64,000 nucleotides of DNA from NCBI GenBank assembly GCA_019055375.1, contig JAHQIW010007193.1, forward strand, positions 37,133 to 101,132, in the 5' to 3' direction. A model generated the notes under the pieces. The model ran no database searches and was not told where the DNA came from. It saw only the letters and a list, made by a program, of their open reading frames with translations. Made by a program: the position numbers and the translations under genes. This document shows, one piece after another, positions 5,395 to 64,000 of the stretch. Source of the stretch: Parelaphostrongylus tenuis. Taxonomy: Eukaryota > Nematoda > Chromadorea > Rhabditida > Metastrongylidae. The stretch's first letter is position 1; each line of letters begins with the position of its first letter.

Positions 5395-5970
5395 TTCACG
5401 AAACCGCAACCACCATCGTCTTTGTACCAGCGTAATACTATTAGTACCTTTCGTTACGAGTGTTTTCTCCAGACACTCTCGAATTTCAACACATCTCATA
5501 ATTCCTACCTGAGCCAACACGTCATGTAGTCTGTTACGAGGAAAACCTATAAAGCCCCATACACATGTTTCGACCTTGACAGTCTCATCAGTCGCGCGGT
5601 CCTTTTCGTCTTATGCCTCTCGGGGCGTTCAGTCCCCTATAGTAAGAGTTGGCGATGACGAACATTTTACACTGTCCATCAAGTGAAGTTATCATTGAAT
5701 GGACAGTGTTGTACATTTGATTGCTCTTGGCTCTCATCGTTGATATATGTTACCTTTTGCTTCGAGTGTTTTCCTAAAACTACCCTCAAATTTCAGTATA
5801 TTCATAACTATTATTTGAGCCAACATGTCATGTTAGAATTGGCAAAAGACGAAGGGCACCGCCCGGTTAATGAGACCGCCAAGGTTGAAGCACGTGAATG
5901 GGGTCTATAAGTTTGCCTAATATTAAACCACATGACATGTTGGCTCAAATAATATTTGAGAGATATGTCG
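5395..5970. repeat. hammerhead-bearing repeat with an internal inverted copy
   Basis: The segment carries the block 'tgagccaacatgtcatgt' twice in direct orientation (about 5511 and 5818) and once inverted (5930-5950). Between them lie a 'gtctcatcag' hammerhead core on the minus strand and a tail with 'cactgtccatcaagtgaag'. The same arrangement recurs near 46.2-46.8, 52.4-52.9 and 53.55-53.78 kb, which defines a family. The RTE copy starts immediately to the right (about 5965). Confidence 0.6.
5553..5599 (-). ncRNA. hammerhead-like ribozyme motif (type I)
   Basis: On the minus strand: CTGATGA, stem II GAC/GTC with a 7-base loop, GAAA, stem III ACA/TGT with a 2-base loop, then A at the cleavage position. 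Stem I is weak (several G-G contacts). The core is intact, but self-cleavage is doubtful because stem I barely pairs. Confidence 0.55.
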
Positions 5971-7662
5971 AACTCCGATACCCTGACGGGAAACTTACAG
6001 CTTCGAGAAGGGCTATGGAGAAAATCATCCACCAATACTACTCGGATCTCTTCGCTAACCTTGTCCTCTTACCGTCATATAAATTGAAAGAGGACGAATA
6101 TGTCGTCCACCGGCCCTCCCTTCCAAAATCCGACATGCTATATCGTCGGTGAAGAACAGAACAACACCCGGTCCAGACAGGATTAAACCAGAACATCTGA
6201 AGAATCTGCCGCCAGTTCTCATCAACACCCTGGCTCGGCTCTTCACTCGCTACCTGTTAGAATGCAGGTGCCTATTCAATGGAAAACCAGCAAGACCGTC
6301 TTGTTGTTCAAAAAGGGAGACCTTCACGACATAGGCAATTATCGCCCAATCTGCTTGCTGTCCGTTGTCTATAAACTCTTTACTCGAGTCATCCTAAACA
6401 GGATTGACAGAACACTGGACGAAGGACAGCCATGAGAACAAGCAGGGTTCCAAAGGATTTAGTACCATGGACCACATCCACACGATTACAAGACTCATCG
6501 AAGTTTCACGAGAGTACAAACAACCACTCTGCCTCACTTTCATCGATCTGAAGAAAGCCTTTGATTCAGTGGAAACAGAAGCGGTTATAGAGGCTCTGGA
6601 TAACCAGGGCTTCCCTACTCGGTACATAGTGATCCTTCGTGAGCTTTATAAAGATTTCACGACCAAAATATCTCCATTCTACAACAATATCACCATTGAC
6701 GTAAGAAGAGGGGTTCGACAAGGCGATACAATTTCGCCAAAACTATTCACTGCCACCCTACAAAACGTCATGCGAACATTAGAATGGGACGAAATGGGAG
6801 TGAAAATTGACGGTCGACAATTAAACCATCTTCGCTTTGCTGTCGTTCTCATAACACCAAGCATCAGCCATGCGAAACGAATGTTGACCGATTTCGATAA
6901 CGTCTGTGGAAAGATTGGTCTTCAACTGAATCTAACGAAAACAATGTTCATGAGGAACGGATGGGTTTCTAATGCCCTATTCACGCTCAACGGAACGACA
7001 ATCTCCGAATGCTCCAGTTACGTCTATCTAGGTCGTGAAATCAACATGATGAACGACCTAGCTCCAGAGTTGAGCAGGAGGAAACGAGCGGCTTGGGGAA
7101 CGTTTAAGAGCATCGAAGATGTAGTGAAGAGGACAAAGAACGTCCGACTCCGTGCCCACCTTTTCGACTCGACAATTATCCCTGCCCTGACGTATGCAGC
7201 AGAAACCTGGTCGCTACGTAAGCAGGATGAAAGATCACTTGCCGTTATCGAACGCGCAGTCGAAAGGTCGATGCTAGGAGCATCCCGTATCTCGCAAATA
7301 AGAGAAAGGATCCGAAGTTCCGACCTACGTCAACGATCGAAAATCAGAGACGCCGTTCTACACGCCAGGATATCGAAAATCAGGTGGGCCGGACACGTGA
7401 TGCGCTTCAACGACAACCGATGGACGAGAGCCGTTACCGACTGGATTCCTCGGGACGTCAACGCTCTAAAGGAAGACCGCTGACCCGTTGGTCCGATTTC
7501 TTCACGAAAGAGATGGAAGAAAGATATGATGCTCAGCGAATCCCTAGAGCGAGGAGGACCCACTGGGCTACTCTTGCACGCGATAGGGAAAAATGGAAGA
7601 GTTGCTGGTACCCGCTCGAGTCACTCGAAGATCAACGGGACGACAGGTGATGCAGGTGATGA
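5965..7662 (+). mobile_element. RTE-clade non-LTR retrotransposon, 5'-truncated
   Basis: This copy begins inside the open reading frame, in the linker before RT, with no endonuclease domain. It continues through reverse transcriptase to a characteristic 3' end (ggacgacaggtgatgcaggtgat, about 7640-7662). Pieces of the same family occur at 15.83, 25.67, 55.99 and 63.92 kb. The reading frame is broken near 6150 (stop after LYRR), near 6300 (frame change) and before 6435 (TGA). Truncation at the 5' side is usual for target-primed reverse transcription. It sits in an intron of srx copy A, in the opposite orientation to the gene. Confidence 0.9.
6404..7483 (+). pseudogene. RTE reverse transcriptase fragment with destroyed catalytic box
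   Basis: A 359-codon open stretch. Residues about 47-58 hold RT motif A (FIDLKKAFDSVE); about 105-120 hold motif B (RRGVRQGDTISPKLF). Motif C, expected as FADD about 145-152, reads FAVVLIT and is two residues short, so the paired catalytic aspartates are gone; a 6-base in-frame loss would explain this. The C-terminal part (IRWAGHVMRFNDNRWTRAV) is typical of the nematode RTE family. The same frame reads into 7483, and the rest of the C-terminus continues in another frame to about 7650. The element cannot encode active RT. Motif positions are estimated. Confidence 0.88.
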
Positions 7663-8882: not shown

Positions 8883-9187
8883 GTGAGCGAGTAGAGGATA
8901 TTTTTATACCACATGCGAGTCGTGCCCCTATCGATACACAGCCACCCACACACCTGAGCTACAGGAAATGCGTGCTGAGTGCAAAGTTTACCCTTCTATT
9001 GGCTGCTACAGTGCACTAAAAGTCTTTTTCAGGAACCATGTGGGCCATTAGAATTAGCGAAATAATCTCAACAATTCAAAAGTTCGACTTTCTATAAACC
9101 TCGGCATAATTAATTGTTATATGAAAAACGAGAAAAAACTTATCTTGATTAGCTGACGCGAGGTTGGTAAATTAGTCGTAGAAATTC

Positions 9188-9222
9188 GGCTGACGTTTCG
9201 GCGACCCGCCTTCTTCAGAGCC
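9188..9222 (-). ncRNA. hammerhead-like motif, minimal form
   Basis: Minus strand: stem I GGCT/AGCC (4 bp), CTGAAGA, one extra A, stem II GGC/GCC, GAAA, a very short ACGT stem III, cleavage site GTC. Penelope-like elements are known to carry minimal hammerheads with short stem III. The extra A before stem II is not canonical, so activity is uncertain. Confidence 0.5.
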
Positions 9223-9314
9223 TGGGCGTATGTAGTATTAGACTATTTGAATGATTTTCTTTATTTATTTGAATGACGAAAATCATTCAAATAGTCTATT
9301 ACTACATACGCCCA

Positions 9315-9349
9315 GGCTCTGAGGAAGGCGGGTCGCCGAAACGTCAGCC
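9315..9349 (+). ncRNA. hammerhead-like motif, minimal form (mirror copy)
   Basis: Mirror of 9188-9222 with CTGAGGA in place of CTGAAGA; stem I GGCT/AGCC, stem II GGC/GCC, GAAA and GTC are all kept. Confidence 0.5.
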
Positions 9350-10267
9350 GAATTTCTACGACTAATTTACCAACCTCGCGTCAGCTAGTCAAGACAAGTT
9401 TTTTTCTGAAAATTATCTCAGCTTTTTTCGTGATAATGAAAGTCTAGAAAAGCACTGTCCTGCAGAAAACGCACTGAATGCAAAGCATAATTTTATTTCT
9501 ACTGCTACAGAGCATCGAAGAGAAAGAGATCTTTCTAAGAATAAAGTACAGTGACAATGTGCTTATCACTCTCTAATTCATAGACGTCCAACCGATTGAT
9601 CAGAAGGAGCCTCTCATTTTTGAATTTGCTATCTGTGAACGGAACATTCATTCAAATGCAATGTGCATGCTTTCAGTGTAATTGCTGAGGGGGTCGCTAT
9701 ATTCGAACATTAATAATCCAGTGGATTGAGTTCAGCAAAACTCACCCTCTGAAATGCGGCAATGTATGAAGGATGCCCAGAAACCAACAGATCAAAACAG
9801 TCAAAGAGATGTTTCTCAAGGACAGTAAGCTGCCAACTCGTAGTGGAAACGTTATGGCGATAACTCTGTTCATGAAAATAGCGAGATGAGAGTAGATGGC
9901 TGCAAACCAGCACATCTCAATCACATTGCCGAACAGTCTCCCTATCGATTTGGCTGTTAAACCGCTACCGCTGAAAGTCATAAAGTATTGTATTCTACAA
10001 TGCAATATCTTCATAACCCGTAATTTCTTCTGAAAATTCATTTTCACCTTTTTCTCTCTAACTTCTGATACTGGGCTCTATTTTCAATGAGTAAAAAGAA
10101 TATGGAAGGAGTGAATCCTTGAAAAAAGTAGTTCATCTAAACGACGCTATTTATTCTTTTGTTTTTCACACTACAGTCAAGGATTTCACCACATTTTGCA
10201 AAAGGTCCCGCAATCCACTTTCAAGCTATCACGCACTAGTTGTCGGGAAGTAATGATATACTGCGTA

Positions 10268-12578: not shown

Positions 12579-13091
12579 TATTTAGTAATTCACCGTAATC
12601 GTGACGGAATTCTGGTTTATGGGGGCCTTAGTTCATGAGTGCCACCACTGATTGTTAAAAAACTTCAAGACTAGAGGCACTGCATAGTTACGCTGTGTAA
12701 TCGGTGTCATGCAGAAGACGAATATGAACAGAAAAAACATATTGGCGATGTTGTGTGAGAGGCACAGTAGACCAAAAGAGTTTCGCAGCGTCGGATTGCG
12801 TCGGATGGCGAATATAGCAATGCCGTTCAAAGACAAAGGGAACAATTCTACCTGAAATACATTGATCTCGTTTCCCTTTTTAGTAATATAACGGCGCAGC
12901 TTTTTGTTAAATCTTCAGTTTGAAGCAGTTCTTCATTTTAGATTTTTGAGAAATAATCAGGAATTTCAATGAATCCTGAAGTCACTTGACAGCTAAGGAG
13001 AAACTTTATTATTTGGAAGGAGAGTTGAATTTCGTCAATTTTTGCAAGCGAGCAACAGGTTCATATAAGCGGGCTGCACAAAATGCGAAAT

Positions 13092-15825: not shown

Positions 15826-16018
15826 TCTACGGGAAAACCCCTACCCGATGATCCGATTTCTTCGCGAAAAGACTAGAGAAAAATATGATGGTGAACGAAT
15901 TTCTAGAGCAAGGAGGACTCATTGAGCCACTCTTGCACGCGATAGGGAAAATGGAAATGTTGCTGGTGCCCGCTCGAGTCATTTGACAATCAACGGGACG
16001 ACAGGTGATACAGGTGAT
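15825..16018 (+). mobile_element. RTE 3'-end fragment
   Basis: Matches the last 190 bases of the RTE element at 7.47-7.66 kb (gatccgatttcttc..., gcacgcgatagggaaaa, caacgggacgacaggtgatacaggtgat) with frameshifts. It marks the outer edge of the left arm of the large inverted duplication. Confidence 0.85.
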
Positions 16019-18305
16019 TTTGGAAATAATTTTTGCTGCATTGATTAAATTTTTGTATGAACTTTGAATCTATTCAGAGAATGTTAGGGAACTTTTTTCT
16101 CATCCTATTATCATATTCATAGTGCTGACAATTTTCTAGCAAGAAACCAACTTACGACGCCGCGGTGCGCAGCGACCTAACTGATGTCAAAATATGACAA
16201 CTAACAGCAAAATTAGAATTCAAATAGGGAAAATGTAACGTTTTCAAAGCCTTTCATATGTGGAAGGCCTATAAAACCACTCTGACGGGTGACATTCTAG
16301 TAATGGGCCATCTCAATGATGCTCGGTAATTGATCGGGAAATGACAGACGTATACTCAGCATTGCATCATTTTTCCTGTTTTTACTCGATCATTCATTTG
16401 ATAAAGAGCACATTTTTTGGCAATGAAAGAGAAAAAATTGATCACACTTGCTTCGAAGTTTCGGAATTTTTGTGCAACAACTGGAAGGGCTAGAACTGTG
16501 AAACGGCCATAGGAAGCGTGACCCTGACTGGAGTGAAGAAGAGTCTTCTAAATGCAGTCTTAAGCTTAAGAGACACACAAGGAAGCAGTTATCACCATCT
16601 TGTAGTCAGCAACACATCAAATTGCTTATATATCCTTCTGACCTGGTATTTACATAGCATGTAATTGGCATAAACAATCGTTTTACATCCTTATCAGATT
16701 ATATCATTTTCAGCGGGTCTATGAAAAAGCGGTCGATGGAAGAGGTATAATTACATAGCATAAAATTATCTTCTTAGGAAGAGGACATAAGTGCAAGAAA
16801 AATGAAACATATGAAGTCCGTCATAAGAATTCTTATGTTCTTGCCCCTGCAAGTCATTTTCACATTCAACTATTTTTTTTGTTCAGGTAATGATTAAGTT
16901 AAAGTCAAATACTATCTCATACCACTATTGGTTAGACTTAGCTAATTGTTTTTTGATTGCGTCTCTGAAACTATGTAGTGGCCCGTGGATACGAGTTCAC
17001 GTTATATTACAGCCATTGTAAGAAGAACATCACCATTTTGTCATAAACTCAACAACATTACATAATTAATCAAACTCAGTCACTTCAGTGCTTTCGCAGT
17101 ACTAAGGTTCTGCACCTCATCAAACTTGTGCTTGCAAAACTCTCCTTATTTTAGCCAATAGTAGAATACAAGTGTTGTTATTTATAGGGGTCATTACATA
17201 GTTCCACAATTACTTCACATCAGTTTAAACTCACACTTGTAATCAATCACATTAAGTCTCTCTCACTAATGTGGTTCTATTTGAGGTGACCACAGGACTA
17301 CAAAGTCTGTTTCGTACGCTTACGATAAACTATTAAAATCACCACCATTACACAAGTGACTGCAATACAGTAGCATTAGCGCATAATGCAACGGGAATAA
17401 CGGGTTTGATTGGGAAATTGCGTTGAATCACATATCGTCGACACTAGTTGGTGTAATATCACAAAAGAGTTCTTTCTAGTAAGGAGAGCACCTATGCGTT
17501 GAAAATTTCCTATAATTCAACGAGGAAATTACATTCTTCTGAAAAAAGGACATACATCCGGTTGTTATCTAGCATTTTCGTTGCTTTATCTATGATTTTG
17601 CAGGTATTTGATAGCTTGATAGATATGGATTTGAAGATTTAGCATCGTTTGTGAAAAAACTATAAAGTACATTCTACTGACGCAAAGAAGATTAGATTTT
17701 GCCTATCGGCGATGTGGCATCGCATGCAGTTTGTAGCACTATTTTGTCAAACTATTCGCTCTATTGTAATTTTCAGCCACTATGGTGACCTTTCGGCATT
17801 GTATGAAATGAGGGAATACAAAATCAAAAGATTCATGTCTAATATTCAATTTTGAAAGGATATTTGTTTATTTGATTGCTTATTCATTTGCTGTAGTGTA
17901 TGAAAGTGAATTGCTGTTGACTTAATAAATAAAAGATAAATATGATTGAAATATGAGCAACATTAAATAAGCTGATATAAGGATGTTGAATAGCAGATCG
18001 AATTTGTCTTCTTGTAAGGAACTGATTTCACCCGCAAAGATGCAGTATTTTGGAAGAAGTATTCACGTTGTTTCTAGTACACACAACCCCGGTTTGGTTT
18101 TGCTATCACATTCTACTATTTGCTCACGACGTATTTTCCTTTGGTGACGACCAAAAGTTGATTTCATTAGGAACACTGTCACTGAAACGGAAACGTCGGT
18201 CAATCGCCAACGTGATGTGTACAAGGCGAAATAAAGCACAATTCTCAGCGTGTTAACGTCGAAGGACTCCGTTACTCACGTTCAACATCAAACCTAAACC
18301 CAAAA
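15830..18305 (+). repeat. left arm of a large inverted duplication
   Basis: This stretch matches the reverse complement of 61.6-64.0 kb along its whole length. Landmarks include the RTE tail, 'gatgtcaaaatatgacaact', 'gaagtttcggaatttttgtgc', 'gaggtgaccacaggactacaaagtctgtt', 'gatgtggcatcgcatgcagt' and 'aacgtcgaaggactccgttactcac'. Identity looks roughly 80-88 per cent by eye. It contains no intact coding sequence. Confidence 0.85.
17141..17370. repeat. fold-back arm paired with 19508-19732
   Basis: Runs from 'ctccttattttagccaatagtagaat' to 'tgactgcaatacag' and is inverted at 19508-19732. The same arm recurs at 62.56-62.79 kb, where it is followed by a further TIR-like part that is itself inverted at 61.47-61.60 kb. 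These are ends of one fold-back transposon family. Confidence 0.75.
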
Positions 18306-18453
18306 AAGGGAAAACCATTAATTTATTTCGAAGCTAGATAACCAAATGCTGTCAGTTTGAATGCGTTTACTGCCAGTATGGGAAGCCAGACCAAGGGCAG
18401 CTACGATAAATTCAAAAAAGAATGTGTTAAGCCTAAACGAGGTTGGTACGCCA

Positions 18454-18501
18454 GGGCCATACACCGCTGTTTCGGAGGTTCGTCCTCCTCGTCAGTGACC
18501 C
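18454..18501 (-). ncRNA. hammerhead ribozyme, type I, apparently intact
   Basis: Minus strand in order: stem I strand GGGTCA, core CTGACGA, stem II GGAGG/CCTCC (5 bp, 5-base loop), GAAA, stem III ACA/TGT around GCGG, cleavage A, stem I partner TGGCCC (6 bp including one G-U). All universally conserved core bases are present. Stem III differs from the mirror copy by one base that weakens the inner pairs. Confidence 0.85.
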
Positions 18502-18759
18502 GCGCCCCACATTAAGACCTGCATTCTAGCAAGTAGGGAGGCGTATGTGTAAGTGGTGATGGCATAGTGTACAATGACACTGGTCCATCACCTTAAGTTG
18601 ATGGAGGTTTCAAAAACAGTCGATTTAATGGATTCATTTTGGTCTATCAGCCAAATCCATAGCCTGAAGGTGATGGACCAGTGCCATTGTGCACTATGCC
18701 ATCACCACTTACACATACACCTCCCTCCTTGCTACAATGCAGCGCTTAATGTGGGGCGG

Positions 18760-18807
18760 GGGTCACTGACGAGGAGGATGAACCTCCGAAACACCGGTGT
18801 ATGGCCC
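18760..18807 (+). ncRNA. hammerhead ribozyme, type I, intact
   Basis: GGGTCA at 18760-18765, CTGACGA 18766-18772, stem II GGAGG 18773-18777 with CCTCC 18783-18787, GAAA 18788-18791, self-complementary stem III ACACCGGTGT 18791-18800 with no loop, predicted cleavage after A18801, then TGGCCC 18802-18807. Known naturally occurring hammerheads in retroelements share this layout, including the palindromic stem III that favours dimer cleavage. Confidence 0.88.
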
Positions 18808-19507
18808 TGGCGTACCAACCTCGTTTAGGCCTAAAACATTATTTTTTGAATTTATTTTGAATGTTTATCACGAGGTTTCAAAAGCAGTCGATTCAATGGA
18901 TTAATTTTGGTCTAGCAGCAACGATAGTTGATATCAAAAAAGGAAGGGTCACAATGAGTAGCCCGACGATGAAGTGGTAGCACGGGCCCCGATGTAGATA
19001 AAACGTGGGTTCATCTTCCATATGGGGTGGAACATTCTACATATCACTGAACAGTGCTTGAGAAGACTTGCATGAGTGCATTTGCAACGCTGAGTTAACA
19101 GTTTCATTTAAACCTCAGTTCCTGTGGTTTCATCTCTCATAGTACTTCGTGACAAAAAAAATAGGCGGTAAACAAAGTTAAAATATTGCACTTCATATTA
19201 TGCAAGCAAGCTAATTATTTGAAAATATTTTCAATATAAATCCACCTTACACAACTGTTTTCTATAATCGGTGGCATTTCGCTTATCGCCATTACCACTT
19301 TCCTAAATTCAATCTTTAAAAAATACTATCTGCTGAGATTCCACAGCAATTTCTCTTCCGTTGTTCTTTCTGTTTGGTGGACAATCTATGTCCACAATGT
19401 TGGCCCAGACATTCTTGATAGCGAAACACAAAAAAAAAGAAAAACACAGCAGAGAAAATGAAATTTATGAGCAACATGGCTAGTGGAAGATTACAATTTG
19501 TTTGGTA

Positions 19508-25269: not shown

Positions 25270-25560
25270 GTATTGCAAACTCATAGTGCAAACACTCATA
25301 GTGTTGACGTACGTTTCGGCTTGGATGTCGAGCCTCGTCAGTAAAACATGCCTTTCCGTTCAACCGAGCTCCTACTTATAAGAGAATCGACGTCTAACGT
25401 TTTACATTGCACGCCCGGCGAGAACATCACCTGAAATTGTAGTGACAGTCATTTGCTTGATGGCTGGTAAAGGAAAGGCATATGTTACCCATGAGGAGGC
25501 TTGACACAAAAGTCGAAACGTTCGTCTAGCATATCCGACTCATAACAGTGTCTATAAGTT
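25270..25560. repeat. fold-back repeat with two facing hammerhead motifs
   Basis: The segment 'cactcatagtgttgacgtacgtttcgg' (25293) is mirrored by 'cgaaacgttcgtctagcatatccgactcataacagtg' (25514-25551). The left motif keeps a full core; the right one is worn. About 130 bases lie between. Confidence 0.6.
25299..25350 (-). ncRNA. hammerhead-like ribozyme motif, GTC cleavage site
   Basis: Minus strand: CTGACGA (25335-25341), stem II GGCT/AGCC with a 9-base loop, GAAA (25314-25317), stem III ACGTACGT without loop, cleavage triplet GTC (25306-25308). Core and cleavage site are canonical. Stem I pairs only partly (a mismatch at the first position). Confidence 0.65.
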
Positions 25561-45839: not shown

Positions 45840-45935
45840 ACGAGGTTGCTACGTCAGGGCAATACAAGTGTATCGGAGGTCTTGCATACTCTATCAGTGG
45901 CCTACGCTCACGTTAAGCCCTGTTTTGCAGCGAAA
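45840..45935 (-). repeat. worn one-arm relative of the 18.43-kb palindrome
   Basis: 'ttaacgaggttgctacgtcagggcaatacaa...tcggaggt...ctatcagtggcc' aligns with the left arm at 18427-18520. The hammerhead core is worn: CTGATAGA and GATA in place of the conserved bases. Confidence 0.6.
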
Positions 45936-46199: not shown

Positions 46200-46790
46200 T
46201 TACATCTTCTACTACGAGTGTTTTATTTGAAGACATATCTCATAATTATTATTTGAGCCGAATTCGGCTTCTACGTCAAACGCGAGATCGGCTGATTTTT
46301 TTTCCCTACTTCTGCTTTAGATTTCGGCTTAAAATCATTTCCGAGTCATTTAGTAGAAAGCGCGGTCGCGGATCCATCGCCAAAATCCATTCCTTGGCAA
46401 CGACACCGTGAAAACCTGAAGACTCGCTTGCAGGGTTACGTCAGAAAGTCAAGGAATACTATATGCACGACCAGCAATATGCTATTTGGAATATGTGCTG
46501 GGATCCGCACAATTAGTGAAGCACGGACCATCTAAGTAAGTATGAAAGAAGGATTTGAGCCAGAATGCCATGTGAACTGTTGAAGGGCTCTTGTACAGCC
46601 CGTTACACGTGTTTCGGCCTTACAGCCTCATCAGTCGGGCGGGCCCTTCGTCCTTAGCCGATTTCGGGGGCCCCTACATTTCCCTATATAGAGAATGCGT
46701 CGATTTACGCTTTCGTTGTCAAGTGAAAAACTCACTACATTGGCTCTGCGTAATTATGAACAAAATTTCAACAACATTGAAACGTAAACT
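46200..46790. repeat. hammerhead-bearing repeat copy
   Basis: Contains 'tactacgagtgttttatttgaagacatatctcataattattatttgagcc' (46212) and, separated by other sequence, 'ttgtacagcccgttacacgtgtttcggcc...cctcatcagtcgggcg' (46590-46640) with the tail 'ccctatatagagaatgcgtcg'. Same family as 5.4, 52.4 and 53.6 kb. Confidence 0.6.
46598..46640 (-). ncRNA. hammerhead ribozyme motif, full core
   Basis: Minus strand: GCCCGA, CTGATGA, stem II GGC/GCC with a 6-base loop, GAAA, self-complementary ACACGTGT, A, then ACGGGC. Stem I has 5 bp plus an A-A mismatch next to the core. Other core bases are canonical. Confidence 0.7.
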
Positions 46791-52051: not shown

Positions 52052-52309
52052 TCATTCATCACTTAGGTTCTCATACTTTTCACATGTTGTTTCGATTACT
52101 GCATGAAAACAATGCCTTTTTCGTGAGCATCGTGGTATTCTGGTAGAGAGATTCACCTGAGATTTTAGATCACTTTTCAGTCGAATTACCTTTCCTGCTT
52201 TGTCTCGGGGTATCATCCAGATCACCAAGGAAACTATTATTAGTGTGGGGACTGGAGCACCCACAGAAATTAGCAAAAAGGCGAGAAAGGGTAACTGCCC
52301 GACTGACAA
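52052..52309 (-). other. unassigned ORF with hydrophobic start
   Basis: MSVGQLPFLAFLLISVGAPV... then a second hydrophobic run and a charged tail. Part of its DNA ('gtgtggggactggagcaccc', 52235-52255) is shared, inverted, with the repeat at 52.64 kb, so it is probably repeat-derived. Confidence 0.2.
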
Positions 52310-52439
52310 GATCGCAAGATCGAAACACGTGTATCGCGCTCAATAAGTCAACGCTGTTTAACAGACCACTGACGTGCGTGGCTCAAAAATGATTCCAAGG
52401 CATAATGAAATTTGAGCTGTGGTCTTAAGGAGACACTCG

Positions 52440-52930
52440 AAACGAAAGTTATTATTATACCGTTATTTTCGAGTGTTTTCTAAAGACCACGCTTAATTTT
52501 CAACATATCTCAAATTTGCTATCTGAGTCATTTGTCATGTGGTCTATTAAGTGGGCTCCTGTACAGCCCGATGTACGTGTTTCGACCTTACTCGTCGGGC
52601 GAGCAGAACCCTTCGTCTTTTGGCCAATCCTATGCGGGTGCTCCAGTCCCCACACCAAGAGTTAGCGAACGCGAACGATTTACACTGCTGCACTACTGTC
52701 AAGTGAAGATCACTGGAACAGCAGTTTTTACCCTCGATTTCTCTTGGCTGGTATTTGGAAATATATGATACCGTTACTTTCACGTGTTTTATTTAGATCA
52801 CGCTCAGATTTCAGCATATCTCATAATTACTATCTGAACCAACTTGTTATATGGTCTGCTAAACGGGCTTTATTAGAGCCCATTCAACAGACCATATGAC
52901 AAGTTGGCTCAGATAGCAATTATGAAGCTA
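52440..52930. repeat. composite hammerhead-bearing repeat with hairpin
   Basis: Two partial direct copies ('cgagtgttttctaaagaccacgc...', 52470 and 'cacgtgttttatttagatcacgc...', 52780) followed by an inverted one: 52822-52870 is mirrored at 52876-52924 (cataattactatctgaaccaac... / ...gttggctcagatagcaattatg). The first copy contains a hammerhead relic. Confidence 0.7.
52566..52600 (-). ncRNA. hammerhead relic with perfect stem I
   Basis: Minus strand: stem I GCCCGA/TCGGGC (6 bp), but the CTGATGA core has lost bases (reads CGAG); GAAA and ACACGTACA remain. Predicted inactive. Confidence 0.5.
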
Positions 52931-53559: not shown

Positions 53560-53775
53560 ATTATTTTAAGCCACGCATGTGGTCTGTTATGGCACTTACA
53601 AAGTGCAATACAAGTGTTTCGACCTCGCAGTCTCGTGAGTTGCACAGTGCCTTTCGCTTCAGTCAGTTCCACGGCAGAAGTATACCCTGTGAAAAGGAGC
53701 CGACGCCGTACGTCTTACCCGGCCCATCAAGTGAAAGAGCTATCAAATGCGTGGTGTTGTACACTTGATAGATTT
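53560..53775. repeat. hammerhead-bearing repeat copy
   Basis: Contains 'agccacgcatgtggtctgttatggcac', the hammerhead relic, and a tail '...catcaagtgaaagagctatcaaatgcgtggtgttgtacact', matching 5.55-5.72 kb in order. Confidence 0.6.
53603..53645 (-). ncRNA. hammerhead relic with covarying stem I
   Basis: Minus strand: stem I GTGCAA/TTGCAC (6 bp, a different sequence from all other copies), core worn to CTCACGA, stem II GAC/GTC, GAAA, stem III ACA/TGT. Pairing was kept while sequence changed, which supports a once-functional ribozyme. Confidence 0.6.
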
Positions 53776-61464: not shown

Positions 61465-61600
61465 ACCAAGAACAGCAGCATTAGCGCGTATTGCGATGGG
61501 AATAAGGGGTTTAATTGGCGAATTGCGTTCAATTATACATCGTCGCCACTAATTGGTGTAATGTCACAAAAGAGTTTTGGTTATGTAAGGTCGGAATAAA
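61465..61600. repeat. fold-back TIR, inverted at 62440-62575
   Basis: 'cagcattagcgcgtattgcgatggg...ggtgtaatgtcacaaaagag' is mirrored at 62465-62575 and is colinear with 17365-17490. It bounds the inner edge of the right duplication arm. Confidence 0.75.
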
Positions 61601-64000
61601 TCAATGGTTCTACTGCTTTTTCAAAGGATAAGGTTTCGTGTTGGAAGTGAGTAACGGAGTTCATCGGCGTTAGCACGTTGAGGACCGTGCTGATATTTCG
61701 CCTTGTATACAACGTGTTGCCGATTAACCGGCGTACTCCACTGAGGCTGTTTCCTTATGAAATCAGCTTTTGATCGTCACTAATAGAAAATACGTAGTGA
61801 CCAAACGGTAGAATATGAGTGAAAAGACCACAGTAAGGTCTTAGGTACTAGAAACAACGTGAGTACTTCTTCCCTGCATCTTTGCGGGTGAAATCAATCC
61901 CATACTGAAAGAGAAATTCAATCTGTTATTCAACATTCATATATCAGCATATTTGATGTTGCTCATAATTCATTCATATTCATCTTTAATTTATTGAATC
62001 AGCAGCAATTTACTTTCATACATTACAGCAGATGGATAAGCAATCAAATAAAAAATTACATTATCTTCTGTCCTTCCGAAATTAAATATTACAACATAAA
62101 TCCTTTGGTATTGTATTCTCTCATTTCATACAATGCCGAAAAGCCGCCATAGTAGCTGAAAATTGCAATACAGCGAATAATTTGACAAAATAATGCTACA
62201 CACTGCATGCGATGCCACATCACCGATAAGCAAAACATAATCTTCTTTTCGTCAGTAGAATGTACTTTGAAGGATTTTCCGCAAGACGATGCTAAATATC
62301 AAAGTCTACATCTATCAAACTATCAAATGCCAGCAAAATCATAGATAAAACAATAAAAAATGCTAGATGACAACCGGATGTATGTTCTCAAAAGGATGTC
62401 ATTTCCTCGTAAGATTATAGGAATTTTTTGACGCATAGGTGTTCTCTTCACTAGAAAAAGCTCTTTTGTGATATTACACCAGTTAGTGACGACAATATGT
62501 AATTAAATGCAATTTACCAATTGATCCCCTTATTCCCATTGCAATACCTCTAATGTTACTGTATTGCTGTCACTTCAGTAATGGTGGTGACGTGAACAGT
62601 TTACCGTAAGCGTACGGAACAGACTTTGTAGTCCTGTGGTCACCTCAAATAGAACCAAATTAGTGAGAGAAACGTATAGCGATTGATTACAAGTGTGAGT
62701 GTCAGCGGATGTGAAGTAATCGTGGAACTATGTAATGACCAATAACGACACTTTCATTCTACCATTGGCTGAAATAAGGAGAATTTTGCAAGGACAAGCT
62801 TGATCAGGTGCAGAACCTTAGCGAAATGCTGCGAAAGTAGTGAACTGAGCGAGTTTAATTGATTGTATAATGTTGTTGAGTGTTTATGACAAAATGGTAA
62901 TGTTCTTCTCACGGTGGCTGTAATACAACGTGAACTCGTATATACGGGTCATTACATAGTGTCAAAGCCGCAATTAAAAGTAATTAGTTAAGTTTAACCA
63001 CTAGTGGTATGAAATAGTGTTCGCCACTTTAACTTAATCACTACATGAATAAGAAATAGTTCAATACGAAAATGTCTCACAGGGGCGCGAGCATTAAAAA
63101 TTCTTGAAACGAATTTAACTTCATGTGTTTCATTTTTCTTGCACTTCTGTCCTCTTCCTAAGACGATAGTCTTATGCTATGTAATTGTACCTCCTCTATC
63201 GTCTGCTTTTTATAGACCCGTTCAAAATGATATAATCTGATAAGGATACAATAAGTTTATGTAAGCTAATTACATGCTACATCATTAAAAGGGTTAGAAG
63301 AAGATAAAAGCAATTTGATGTGTCTCTGACTAGAAGACGGTGATAACTGCTTCTGTGTGTCTCTTGAGCACTGCATTATGAAAAGTCATCCGTTCACTCC
63401 AGCCACCGTCACGCTTCCTATGCTCGTTTCACAATTCTAGCCCTTCCAATTGTTGTACAGGAATCTCGAAACTTCAAAGTGAGTGTGATCAATTTTCTTC
63501 TCTTTCATTGTCAGAAGAAGTACTTTTTAACAAATACAAGATCGAGTAAGAACAGCAGAAAAATGATACACTGCTGAATATACGTCTGTCGTTTTCCGAT
63601 CAATTACCGAGCATCATAGAGATGGCCCATACTAAAATGACATGCGTCAGAGTGGTTTTGTAGGCCTTCCGCATATGAAGAGCATTGGAAACATTACACT
63701 TCCCCTTTGCTGAACTCTAATTTTACTCCCAGTTGTCATATTTTGGCGTCAGTTGGGTTGCTGCGCACTGCGGCGTCATAAGTTATCTTAATGCTAGAAA
63801 AAGTCAGCACTATGAATATGATATTACGCTGAGAAAAAAGTTCCCTAACATTTGCTGAATAAATTTGAACTTTATACTCAAATCCAATCAAAAGCAACAA
63901 TAATTATTTACCAAAATCCCTGTATCACCTGTCGTCCCGTTGATCGTCGAGTGATTCGAGCAGGTGCCAGCAACACTTACATTTTTCCCTATCGCGTACA
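61600..64000 (-). repeat. right arm of the large inverted duplication (runs off the window)
   Basis: Reverse complement of 15.83-18.305 kb, with the order of landmarks mirrored. The RTE tail at 63923 matches the one at 16018, so the RTE was present before the duplication or both arms are copies of one composite element. Confidence 0.85.
63923..64000 (-). mobile_element. RTE 3'-end fragment cut by the window edge
   Basis: 'atcacctgtcgtcccgttgatcgtcgag' is the inverse of the RTE 3' end. Continues outside the window. Confidence 0.88.

What the first reader, a model, noticed from the sequence alone, without database searches (positions are those of the whole stretch)
18427..18835. Palindromic mobile element carrying two facing, apparently intact type I hammerhead ribozymes
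Seen directly: both arms carry CTGACGA, stem II GGAGG/CCTCC, GAAA, a short stem III and a 6-bp stem I (GGGTCA/TGGCCC). The plus-strand copy has a perfectly self-complementary stem III (ACACCGGTGT). Retroelement hammerheads with a short or loopless stem III are known to work best as dimers, and two facing copies in one transcript is an unusual layout. Whichever strand is transcribed, one active ribozyme would be made.
Basis: partly seen in the sequence, partly recalled or inferred. Interest (0 to 1): 0.88.

Follow-up and report, generated by a model that had tools for sequence, protein, structure and literature searches.

The report
Penelope-style palindromic hammerhead retrozyme insertion
This is one copy of a short mobile element, with no long reading frame and its motif present thousands of times in what is very likely a roundworm genome, that carries a predicted self-cutting RNA motif, and its mirror-image shape is most likely the footprint of a Penelope-type retrotransposon's enzymes copying RNA into both sides of one DNA break.

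Summary
In detail: two outward-facing type I hammerhead motifs lie in a 200-nt inverted repeat. But positions 18409-18914 are one 506-bp insertion with a 12-bp target duplication (11/12), absent from four related genomic places (two probably one place in two contigs). The repeat unit is 268 nt, and the palindrome is the family's commonest form: 45 of 58 distinct copies are head-to-head, none tail-to-tail. In 38 of 44 head-to-head copies one end runs about 41 nt further than the other. These features match published Penelope-like insertions, and this genome holds many Penelope elements, often head-to-head. Best reading: a metazoan-type retrozyme inserted by Penelope machinery; the palindrome is an integration scar. 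Rfam does not recognise this variant; a hammerhead model trained only on another family of this genome finds both arms (E about 1e-5). Cleavage, circular RNA and the enzyme's role are untested; sequence similarity to Penelope tails is only suggestive.

The parts
18397..18408 (.). left target-site duplication GCAGCTACGATA
   Evidence: read; one search found the 6-nt exact core; 11 of 12 identical to the right copy; one uninterrupted, near-identical stretch in the paralogous places L100-L103
18409..18914 (.). the inserted element (506 bp)
   Evidence: bounded by the target duplication; absent from four related places
18409..18603 (-). inverted, truncated copy of the unit (left arm); outer end at unit position about 252 (B end)
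18604..18871 (+). full 268-nt repeat unit (right copy)
   Evidence: hammerheads of the family recur in tandem at 267-278 nt elsewhere in the genome
18872..18914 (+). start of a second unit: the 'tail' that makes the right end longer than the left (A end)
18760..18807 (+). type I hammerhead; predicted cleavage after A 18801
   Evidence: model R1 27.0 bits, E 1.2e-5
18454..18501 (-). type I hammerhead; predicted cleavage between 18460 and 18459
   Evidence: model R1 25.8 bits, E 2.6e-5
18817..18824 (+). 5' strand AACCTCGT of a hairpin predicted around the B priming site
18870..18877 (+). 3' strand ACGAGGTT of that hairpin, running into the tail; a similar CGAGGTT motif lies in the tails of two Penelope families
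18915..18926 (.). right target-site duplication GCAGCAACGATA
   Evidence: as for the left copy

Best explanation
Positions 18409-18914 are one insertion, flanked by a 12-bp target duplication with one mismatch, of a 268-nt repeat unit with a hammerhead motif and no long reading frame (retrozyme-like), and its palindromic shape was most likely made when a Penelope-type reverse transcriptase/GIY-YIG endonuclease cut both DNA strands and started copying RNA at each end of the break, from two start sites about 41 nt apart. Shown here: the single insertion (target duplication, empty sites); the head-to-head rule across the family; the two preferred outer ends (A at unit about 20-50 of a following copy, B at unit about 241-265); inner junctions scattered as if two incomplete cDNAs met 5' to 5'; tandem same-strand units; and Penelope elements with the same head-to-head layout in the same genome. 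Inferred: the template is a multimeric or circular RNA made by hammerhead cleavage of tandem copies (best as a dimer); the Penelope protein recognises a hairpin (AACCTCGT/ACGAGGTT) around the start sites; palindromic copies are largely end products, because their own transcripts would bury the ribozyme in a rod.
For: Layout: 45 of 58 distinct copies head-to-head, 13 one-strand, 0 tail-to-tail or mixed; in the set fetched with a one-strand query, 23 of 31. In an architecture-blind list of 100 exact motif places (the first 100 of 2,938), neighbours within 1 kb are 18 tandem (267-278 nt), 9 head-to-head (217-461 nt) and 1 tail-to-tail at 989 nt. Ends: 38 of the 44 head-to-head copies with both ends available have one A and one B end, median 41 nt apart, range 26-56 (A ends are capped by the query's end, so these are minima). 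Inner ends of the two arms lie >50 nt apart in 27 of 45 and <=20 nt in 8 of 45, as for independent stops. Target duplications of 9 nt or more in 33 of 56 copies tested (2 of 58 not testable) against 3.4% of shuffled pairings; two of the 33 are internal repeats, leaving 31 of mean 11.5 bp with a weak, roughly symmetrical preference. Empty sites for the window element (4 places) and L097 (2 places). Penelope: 150 GIY-YIG places scored of 1,723 candidates, open frames up to 902 aa; neighbours within 6 kb are 20 head-to-head, 2 tandem, 0 tail-to-tail. L084 has an 892-aa ORF with RVT_1 (1.1e-11) and GIY-YIG (2.4e-7), an inverted copy at 99.3% and ends that differ by about 35 nt. Published Penelope traits: inverted pLTRs, head-to-head the most frequent; 8-10-bp duplications; a 31-bp tail on one inverted pLTR (PMC3846280, passages); both strands cut and extended, two adjacent internal start sites bounding the tail (PMC11167929, section 3 read). 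Hammerhead: covariation; a B-trained model finds A; 2,938 and 8,387 exact motif places against 0 for reversed patterns. Recent activity: inverted arms of L094 98.6-99.6% alike in register.
Against: No long ORF in the element, so the enzyme is inferred. The retrozyme-Penelope sequence match is short and weak by itself: 280 and 129 of 20,000 resamplings reach the two scores against the family-2 tail; against the family-1 tail 742-764 of 20,000 for one part and 18,893 of 20,000 (no similarity) for the other. Neither Penelope tail was predicted to form the retrozyme's hairpin, and the retrozyme's tail fold is no better than shuffles overall (z -0.63, 46 of 200). The authors of PMC3846280 explain head-to-head palindromes by self-priming on an antisense template, not by two-ended priming, and one of their families has mostly direct pLTRs. 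In the window copy the two arms are no more alike than arms of other copies (rank 39 of 74), and 9 of 44 copies rank first, so both arms need not come from one RNA molecule. 6 of 44 break the A/B rule. 13 of 58 copies are one-strand; target duplications of 9 nt or more were found in 3 of 12 of these, two of the three being artefacts. Rfam does not see this family, and the B-trained model did not find the minimal Penelope hammerheads of L084 and L086 at E<=1. A single unit is not predicted to fold as a hammerhead. In the lizard Penelope assay hammerhead mutants did not affect insertion (PMC11167929), so the ribozyme may be dispensable for integration.
Confidence: 0.78

Rival explanations
1. Penelope-type insertion, but the palindrome comes from self-priming (snap-back) of one cDNA, on an antisense transcript, rather than from priming at both ends of the break.
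For: This is the reading preferred by the authors of PMC3846280 for rotifer Penelope palindromes (passage).
Against: Snap-back should give the same inner unit position in both arms; here the inner ends lie more than 50 nt apart in 27 of 45 head-to-head copies, about what independent stops would give. The lizard protein cuts and extends both strands (PMC11167929).
Confidence: 0.15
2. Twin priming by an ordinary LINE of the genome, such as the one at 6398-7483 (RTE-like by recall), rather than by Penelope.
For: LINE twin priming also gives inversions with target duplications (recalled); a reverse transcriptase frame lies in the window.
Against: LINE twin priming is, as I recall, a minority outcome, whereas here it is the majority; the short tail on one of two inverted ends is the published Penelope signature. 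A shared 3' end with LINEs of this genome was not tested systematically.
Confidence: 0.08
3. A foldback or MITE-type DNA transposon whose long terminal inverted repeats happen to contain hammerhead motifs.
For: Long inverted repeat and target duplication.
Against: The two outer ends differ (A and B) in 38 of 44 copies, inner junctions are scattered and partial tandem units are common; none of this fits cut-and-paste of fixed termini.
Confidence: 0.04
4. The palindrome is a functional rod-like, viroid-like RNA gene: both strands are transcribed, fold as rods and are processed by a hammerhead of each polarity.
For: The fold is extreme (z -34), and each strand has a hammerhead.
Against: Junction positions and arm lengths vary from copy to copy, and the hammerheads are predicted to be sequestered.
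Confidence: 0.04

Closest known systems
Metazoan non-LTR retrozymes (Cervera and de la Pena 2020, PMC7229834; abstract, passages and discussion seen)
   Same: Type I hammerhead with weak stem III; 268-nt unit (published 150-450 bp); tandem copies; GC 46% (published below 50%); target duplications longer than 4 bp; no long ORF.
   Different: Mostly head-to-head palindromes here; the passages seen describe direct tandem repeats. The paper names Penelope elements as a strong candidate for mobilisation but does not show it; here the insertion signature points to them. Nematodes are not mentioned in its main text (0 occurrences).
Endonuclease-containing Penelope-like elements with pLTRs (PMC3846280, passages; PMC11167929, main text)
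   Same: Head-to-head inverted copies, short target duplications, a 30-40-bp tail on one inverted end, AT-rich targets, hammerhead in the repeat (PMC11167929), partial tandems.
   Different: This element has no RT/GIY-YIG ORF; its hammerhead is fuller (6-bp stem I, 5-bp stem II) than the minimal motif read by pattern in the Penelope copies L084-L089 and L091-L093.
Dimeric hammerheads of newt satellite and Penelope variants (Forster 1988, Lunse 2017; seen only as references in PMC7761336 and PMC6155905)
   Same: Self-complementary short stem III, predicted to pair better as a same-strand dimer.
   Different: In the palindrome the second copy is antisense and cannot serve as dimer partner in cis.

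Membership tests
Type I hammerhead ribozyme | CUGANGA...GAAA core, three stems, stem I open, cleavage after NUH (as recalled) | tested here: met
   among 95 copies compared, 68 keep the core by a strict pattern, 49 also all stems, 27 fail the pattern
Type I hammerhead ribozyme | scores above Rfam gathering cut-off | tested here: not met
   for family A; family B copy L085:202-244 reaches 31.6 bits (cut-off 34), E 7.3e-5
Type I hammerhead ribozyme | self-cleavage | not testable with these tools
   needs in vitro transcription
Metazoan non-LTR retrozyme | 150-450-nt unit, GC below 50%, type I hammerhead, tandem copies | tested here: met
   268 nt, GC 0.46; tandem spacing 267-278 nt
Metazoan non-LTR retrozyme | no coding capacity, LTR, PBS or PPT | tested here: inconclusive
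   no ORF of 120 aa or more overlaps the element; PBS and PPT were not searched for
Metazoan non-LTR retrozyme | abundant circular RNA | not testable with these tools
   no RNA data
Penelope-type integration | head-to-head inverted copies, short target duplication, tail on one end | tested here: met
Penelope-type integration | insertion carried out by a Penelope RT/GIY-YIG protein | not testable with these tools
   such frames are frequent in the genome, but action on this RNA is inferred
Penelope-like element (autonomous) | ORF with RT and GIY-YIG | tested here: not met
   no ORF of 120 aa or more in 18409-18914
Foldback/MITE DNA transposon | identical inverted termini at both ends | tested here: not met
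   outer ends differ by a median of 41 nt in 38 of 44 copies

The most novel reading that the evidence does not exclude
A nematode genome carries more than 11,000 hammerhead motifs of two retrozyme families; at least the one studied here parasitises Penelope elements by mimicking their reverse-transcription start region, and each insertion is made by priming at both ends of one staggered cut from two start sites on tandem or circular ribozyme RNA. This would settle how animal retrozymes move and explain why they end up as palindromes.
Probability: 0.55. Interest if true: 0.76.

Novelty: new variant of a known kind. Interest (0 to 1): 0.62.

Why it matters
How animal retrozymes are mobilised is open: the 2020 retrozyme paper (discussion read) offers Penelope elements as a strong candidate without showing it. 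Here the insertion scars themselves (two outer ends, tail, head-to-head arms, target duplications, empty sites) tie a hammerhead retrozyme to Penelope-type integration, in a genome that holds both partners and a copy (L094) whose inverted arms are 98.6-99.6% alike. That makes the question directly testable with a purified protein and a 268-nt RNA. It also explains a puzzling palindrome as an integration product rather than a two-ribozyme device.

Tried and rejected
Rfam scans of the window and motif gave no hammerhead. MAFFT of both hammerhead families together misaligned them, and one of my references (L075) was mis-placed; I compared them in hand-set columns instead. My hand-written dimer structure could not be scored; the figure quoted is the program's own minimum-energy dimer, which has the double-hammerhead pairing. 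A DNA-transposon reading was rejected because the ends differ. A test that both arms come from one RNA molecule was inconclusive. Direct sequence similarity between retrozyme and Penelope tails is suggestive only. Papers by Lunse 2017, Cervera 2014 and Arkhipova 2017 are not held (one search used a wrong DOI).

Full report
What was claimed and what is there. The window holds an inverted repeat 18406-18605 / 18656-18855, 92% complementary with 50 nt between. Each arm has a type I hammerhead core pointing outward: + at 18760-18807 and - at 18454-18501. The left arm's stem III departs from the perfect palindrome by one base. A descriptor requiring core and all three stems found these two sites plus one probable chance match at 12918, against 2 hits in 40 Markov resamplings of the window.

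Is it really a hammerhead? Rfam 15 does not say so. The genome contains a second hammerhead family (B) with other stems (GCCCGA/TCGGGC, stem III ACACGTGT). One intact B copy, L085:202-244, scores 31.6 bits with Rfam Hammerhead_1 (cut-off 34, E 7.3e-5). Five B sequences, two of which carry a core change and one an A-A at the foot of stem I, show double-sided changes at 5 of 12 pairs; 1 of 500 shuffles does as well. In 98 of the 100 listed B places the second pair of stem II is A-U 52, U-A 18, G-C 11 times, G-U 4 and unpaired 13 times. A covariance model built from B alone finds both family-A arms at E 1.2e-5 and 2.6e-5. Of its 27 matches at E<=1 in 12 other loci, 25 are family-A units; it did not find the minimal Penelope hammerheads of L084 and L086, which were in that set. 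Exact patterns occur 2,938 (A) and 8,387 (B) times in the 481.5-Mb assembly, with 0 for the reversed patterns; allelic contigs may inflate these counts. The assembly has 102 exact copies of the nematode SL1 leader (pattern recalled), many in a 568-nt tandem array, so it is very likely a nematode.

What the element is. Searching the own genome with the palindrome gave 2,409 candidate places, of which 40 were scored. A one-strand 116-nt query gave 147 candidates, 40 scored. After removing overlaps, and copies judged the same by position or shared flanks, I had 58 distinct copies. They resolve into a 268-nt unit, window 18604-18871. 45 copies are head-to-head, 13 lie on one strand, none are tail-to-tail. 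In the set from the one-strand query it is 23 of 31. In the first 100 of 2,938 exact motif places, neighbours within 1 kb are 18 tandem at 267-278 nt, 9 head-to-head and 1 tail-to-tail at 989 nt.

One insertion. Exact matches of 9 nt or more between left and right flanks occur in 33 of 56 testable copies but in 3.4% of shuffled pairings. Two of the 33 are internal repeats; the other 31 average 11.5 bp, and the site weakly resembles AAC|TA...TA|GTT on both strands (strongest column 22 of 31). The window element itself showed only 6 exact nt in that search; by eye it is GCAGCTACGATA at 18397-18408 and GCAGCAACGATA at 18915-18926, 11 of 12. Its joined flanks match four uninterrupted places (C4871:13082-13358, C4872, C5025, C294; identity 0.72-0.81 over the joined flanks), which read GCAGCAACGATA, GCAGCATCAACGATA, ACAGCTACGATA and GCACCTACAATA at the site, with a further gap of about 20 nt in the left flank shortly before it. 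C4871 and C4872 are probably the same place in two contigs. L097 likewise has two empty places. The palindrome therefore most simply arrived in one event.

How it was made. The outer ends are not identical. In 38 of 44 head-to-head copies one end is at unit about 20-30 or beyond of a following copy (A) and the other at unit about 241-265 (B), median 41 nt apart (individual A ends reach unit 25-50). Inner junctions are scattered, and the two arms stop more than 50 nt apart in 27 of 45 copies. This fits two cDNAs primed at the two ends of one staggered cut, from two start sites, meeting 5' to 5'. It does not fit a simple snap-back, the explanation that the authors of PMC3846280 prefer for rotifer Penelope palindromes. 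Published Penelope traits otherwise match: inverted pLTRs, head-to-head the most frequent, 8-10-bp duplications and a 31-bp tail on one of the two (PMC3846280, passages seen); and a purified Penelope protein that cuts and extends both strands and starts at two internal sites that bound the tail (PMC11167929, main-text section read).

The likely partner is present. 150 GIY-YIG places were scored (of 1,723 candidates), with open frames up to 902 aa; neighbours within 6 kb are 20 head-to-head, 2 tandem and 0 tail-to-tail. L084 carries an 892-aa ORF with RVT_1 and GIY-YIG, an inverted copy 99.3% alike and ends differing by about 35 nt. L085 is a 3-kb Penelope palindrome, 99.5% alike. A hairpin AACCTCGT/ACGAGGTT is predicted around the B end, though the whole tail folds no better than shuffles. 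In 69 unit segments (those with a gap on either strand set aside) it keeps its pairs well, with U-A changed to C-G in 8, mostly one subfamily and so perhaps one event. The Penelope tails share TACCAA-CTCGT and CGAGGTTTCAA (family 2) or CGAGGTT (family 1) at corresponding places relative to the ends. Each match alone is modest (280 and 129 of 20,000 resamplings for family 2; 742 of 20,000 for family 1, whose other half shows no similarity), and neither Penelope tail was predicted to fold the same way. Mimicry is suggested, not shown.

What the ribozyme does in a palindrome. Two sense 48-mers are predicted to pair as a double hammerhead (-47.1 kcal/mol against 2 x -15.9), whereas a single 48-mer prefers a non-hammerhead fold. 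In the full transcript of either strand all hammerhead pairs have probability 0.00, because sense pairs with antisense. In one unit alone, linear or circular, stem II forms (0.97) but stems I and III do not (0.00); in the right half alone stem I reaches 0.04-0.12. So tandem copies are the more plausible source of active RNA, and palindromes are mostly products; whole tandem transcripts were not folded, and co-transcriptional folding was not modelled.

Results against. Arms within a copy rank first in similarity in only 9 of 44 copies, and the window copy ranks 39 of 74, so both arms need not stem from one RNA molecule (mean identity within 0.938, between 0.916). Six of 44 head-to-head copies break the A/B rule. 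Hammerhead cores fail the strict pattern in 27 of 95 copies. In the lizard assay hammerhead mutants did not affect insertion (PMC11167929).

In print? Ten literature searches were run. No title or abstract start in their listings reports nematode retrozymes with this layout; most listed papers were not opened, and most subscription papers are not held. One listed paper (PMC7960049, listing only) mentions Penelope in a nematode.

Noticed in passing
window 46598-46640 (-), 52297-52339 (+), 53603-53645 (-), 5554-5597 (-), 5861-5904 (+), 52566-52600 (-): Further hammerheads of family B in the same window (the first four are in the model; the last two were found by it at E 2.7e-7 and 0.0015); 5554/5861 form another head-to-head pair, while 52297/52566 face each other.
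   Followed up: partly
window 9133-9404: A 272-nt palindrome (arms 133 nt, 95%) containing CTGAGGAAGGC...GCCGAAACGTCAG, like the minimal motif of the Penelope copies L084-L093; perhaps a solo Penelope repeat pair.
   Followed up: no
window 25303-25347 (-) and 45857-45902 (-): Marginal hammerhead hits (E 0.017 and 0.039); the second lies in a 75% relative of the palindrome arm.
   Followed up: no
window 18551-18709 (-): Rfam mir-4887 match below cut-off (42.7 of 70 bits, E 1.3e-6) on the palindrome: similar hairpins may have been annotated as microRNAs.
   Followed up: no
window 15934-18346 and 61576-64000: A 2.4-kb inverted duplicate (81.5%) that begins near reverse-transcriptase-like sequence and ends about 60 nt before the element.
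   Followed up: no
L094-L097: Younger subfamily with CTGATGA core and arrays of about 270-nt units; inverted arms of L094 98.6-99.6% alike; target duplications of about 10-12 bp read by eye in L094, L095 and L097. Good copies for tests of activity.
   Followed up: partly
L085:202-244 (+): A complete family-B hammerhead directly beside a 3-kb Penelope palindrome.
   Followed up: partly
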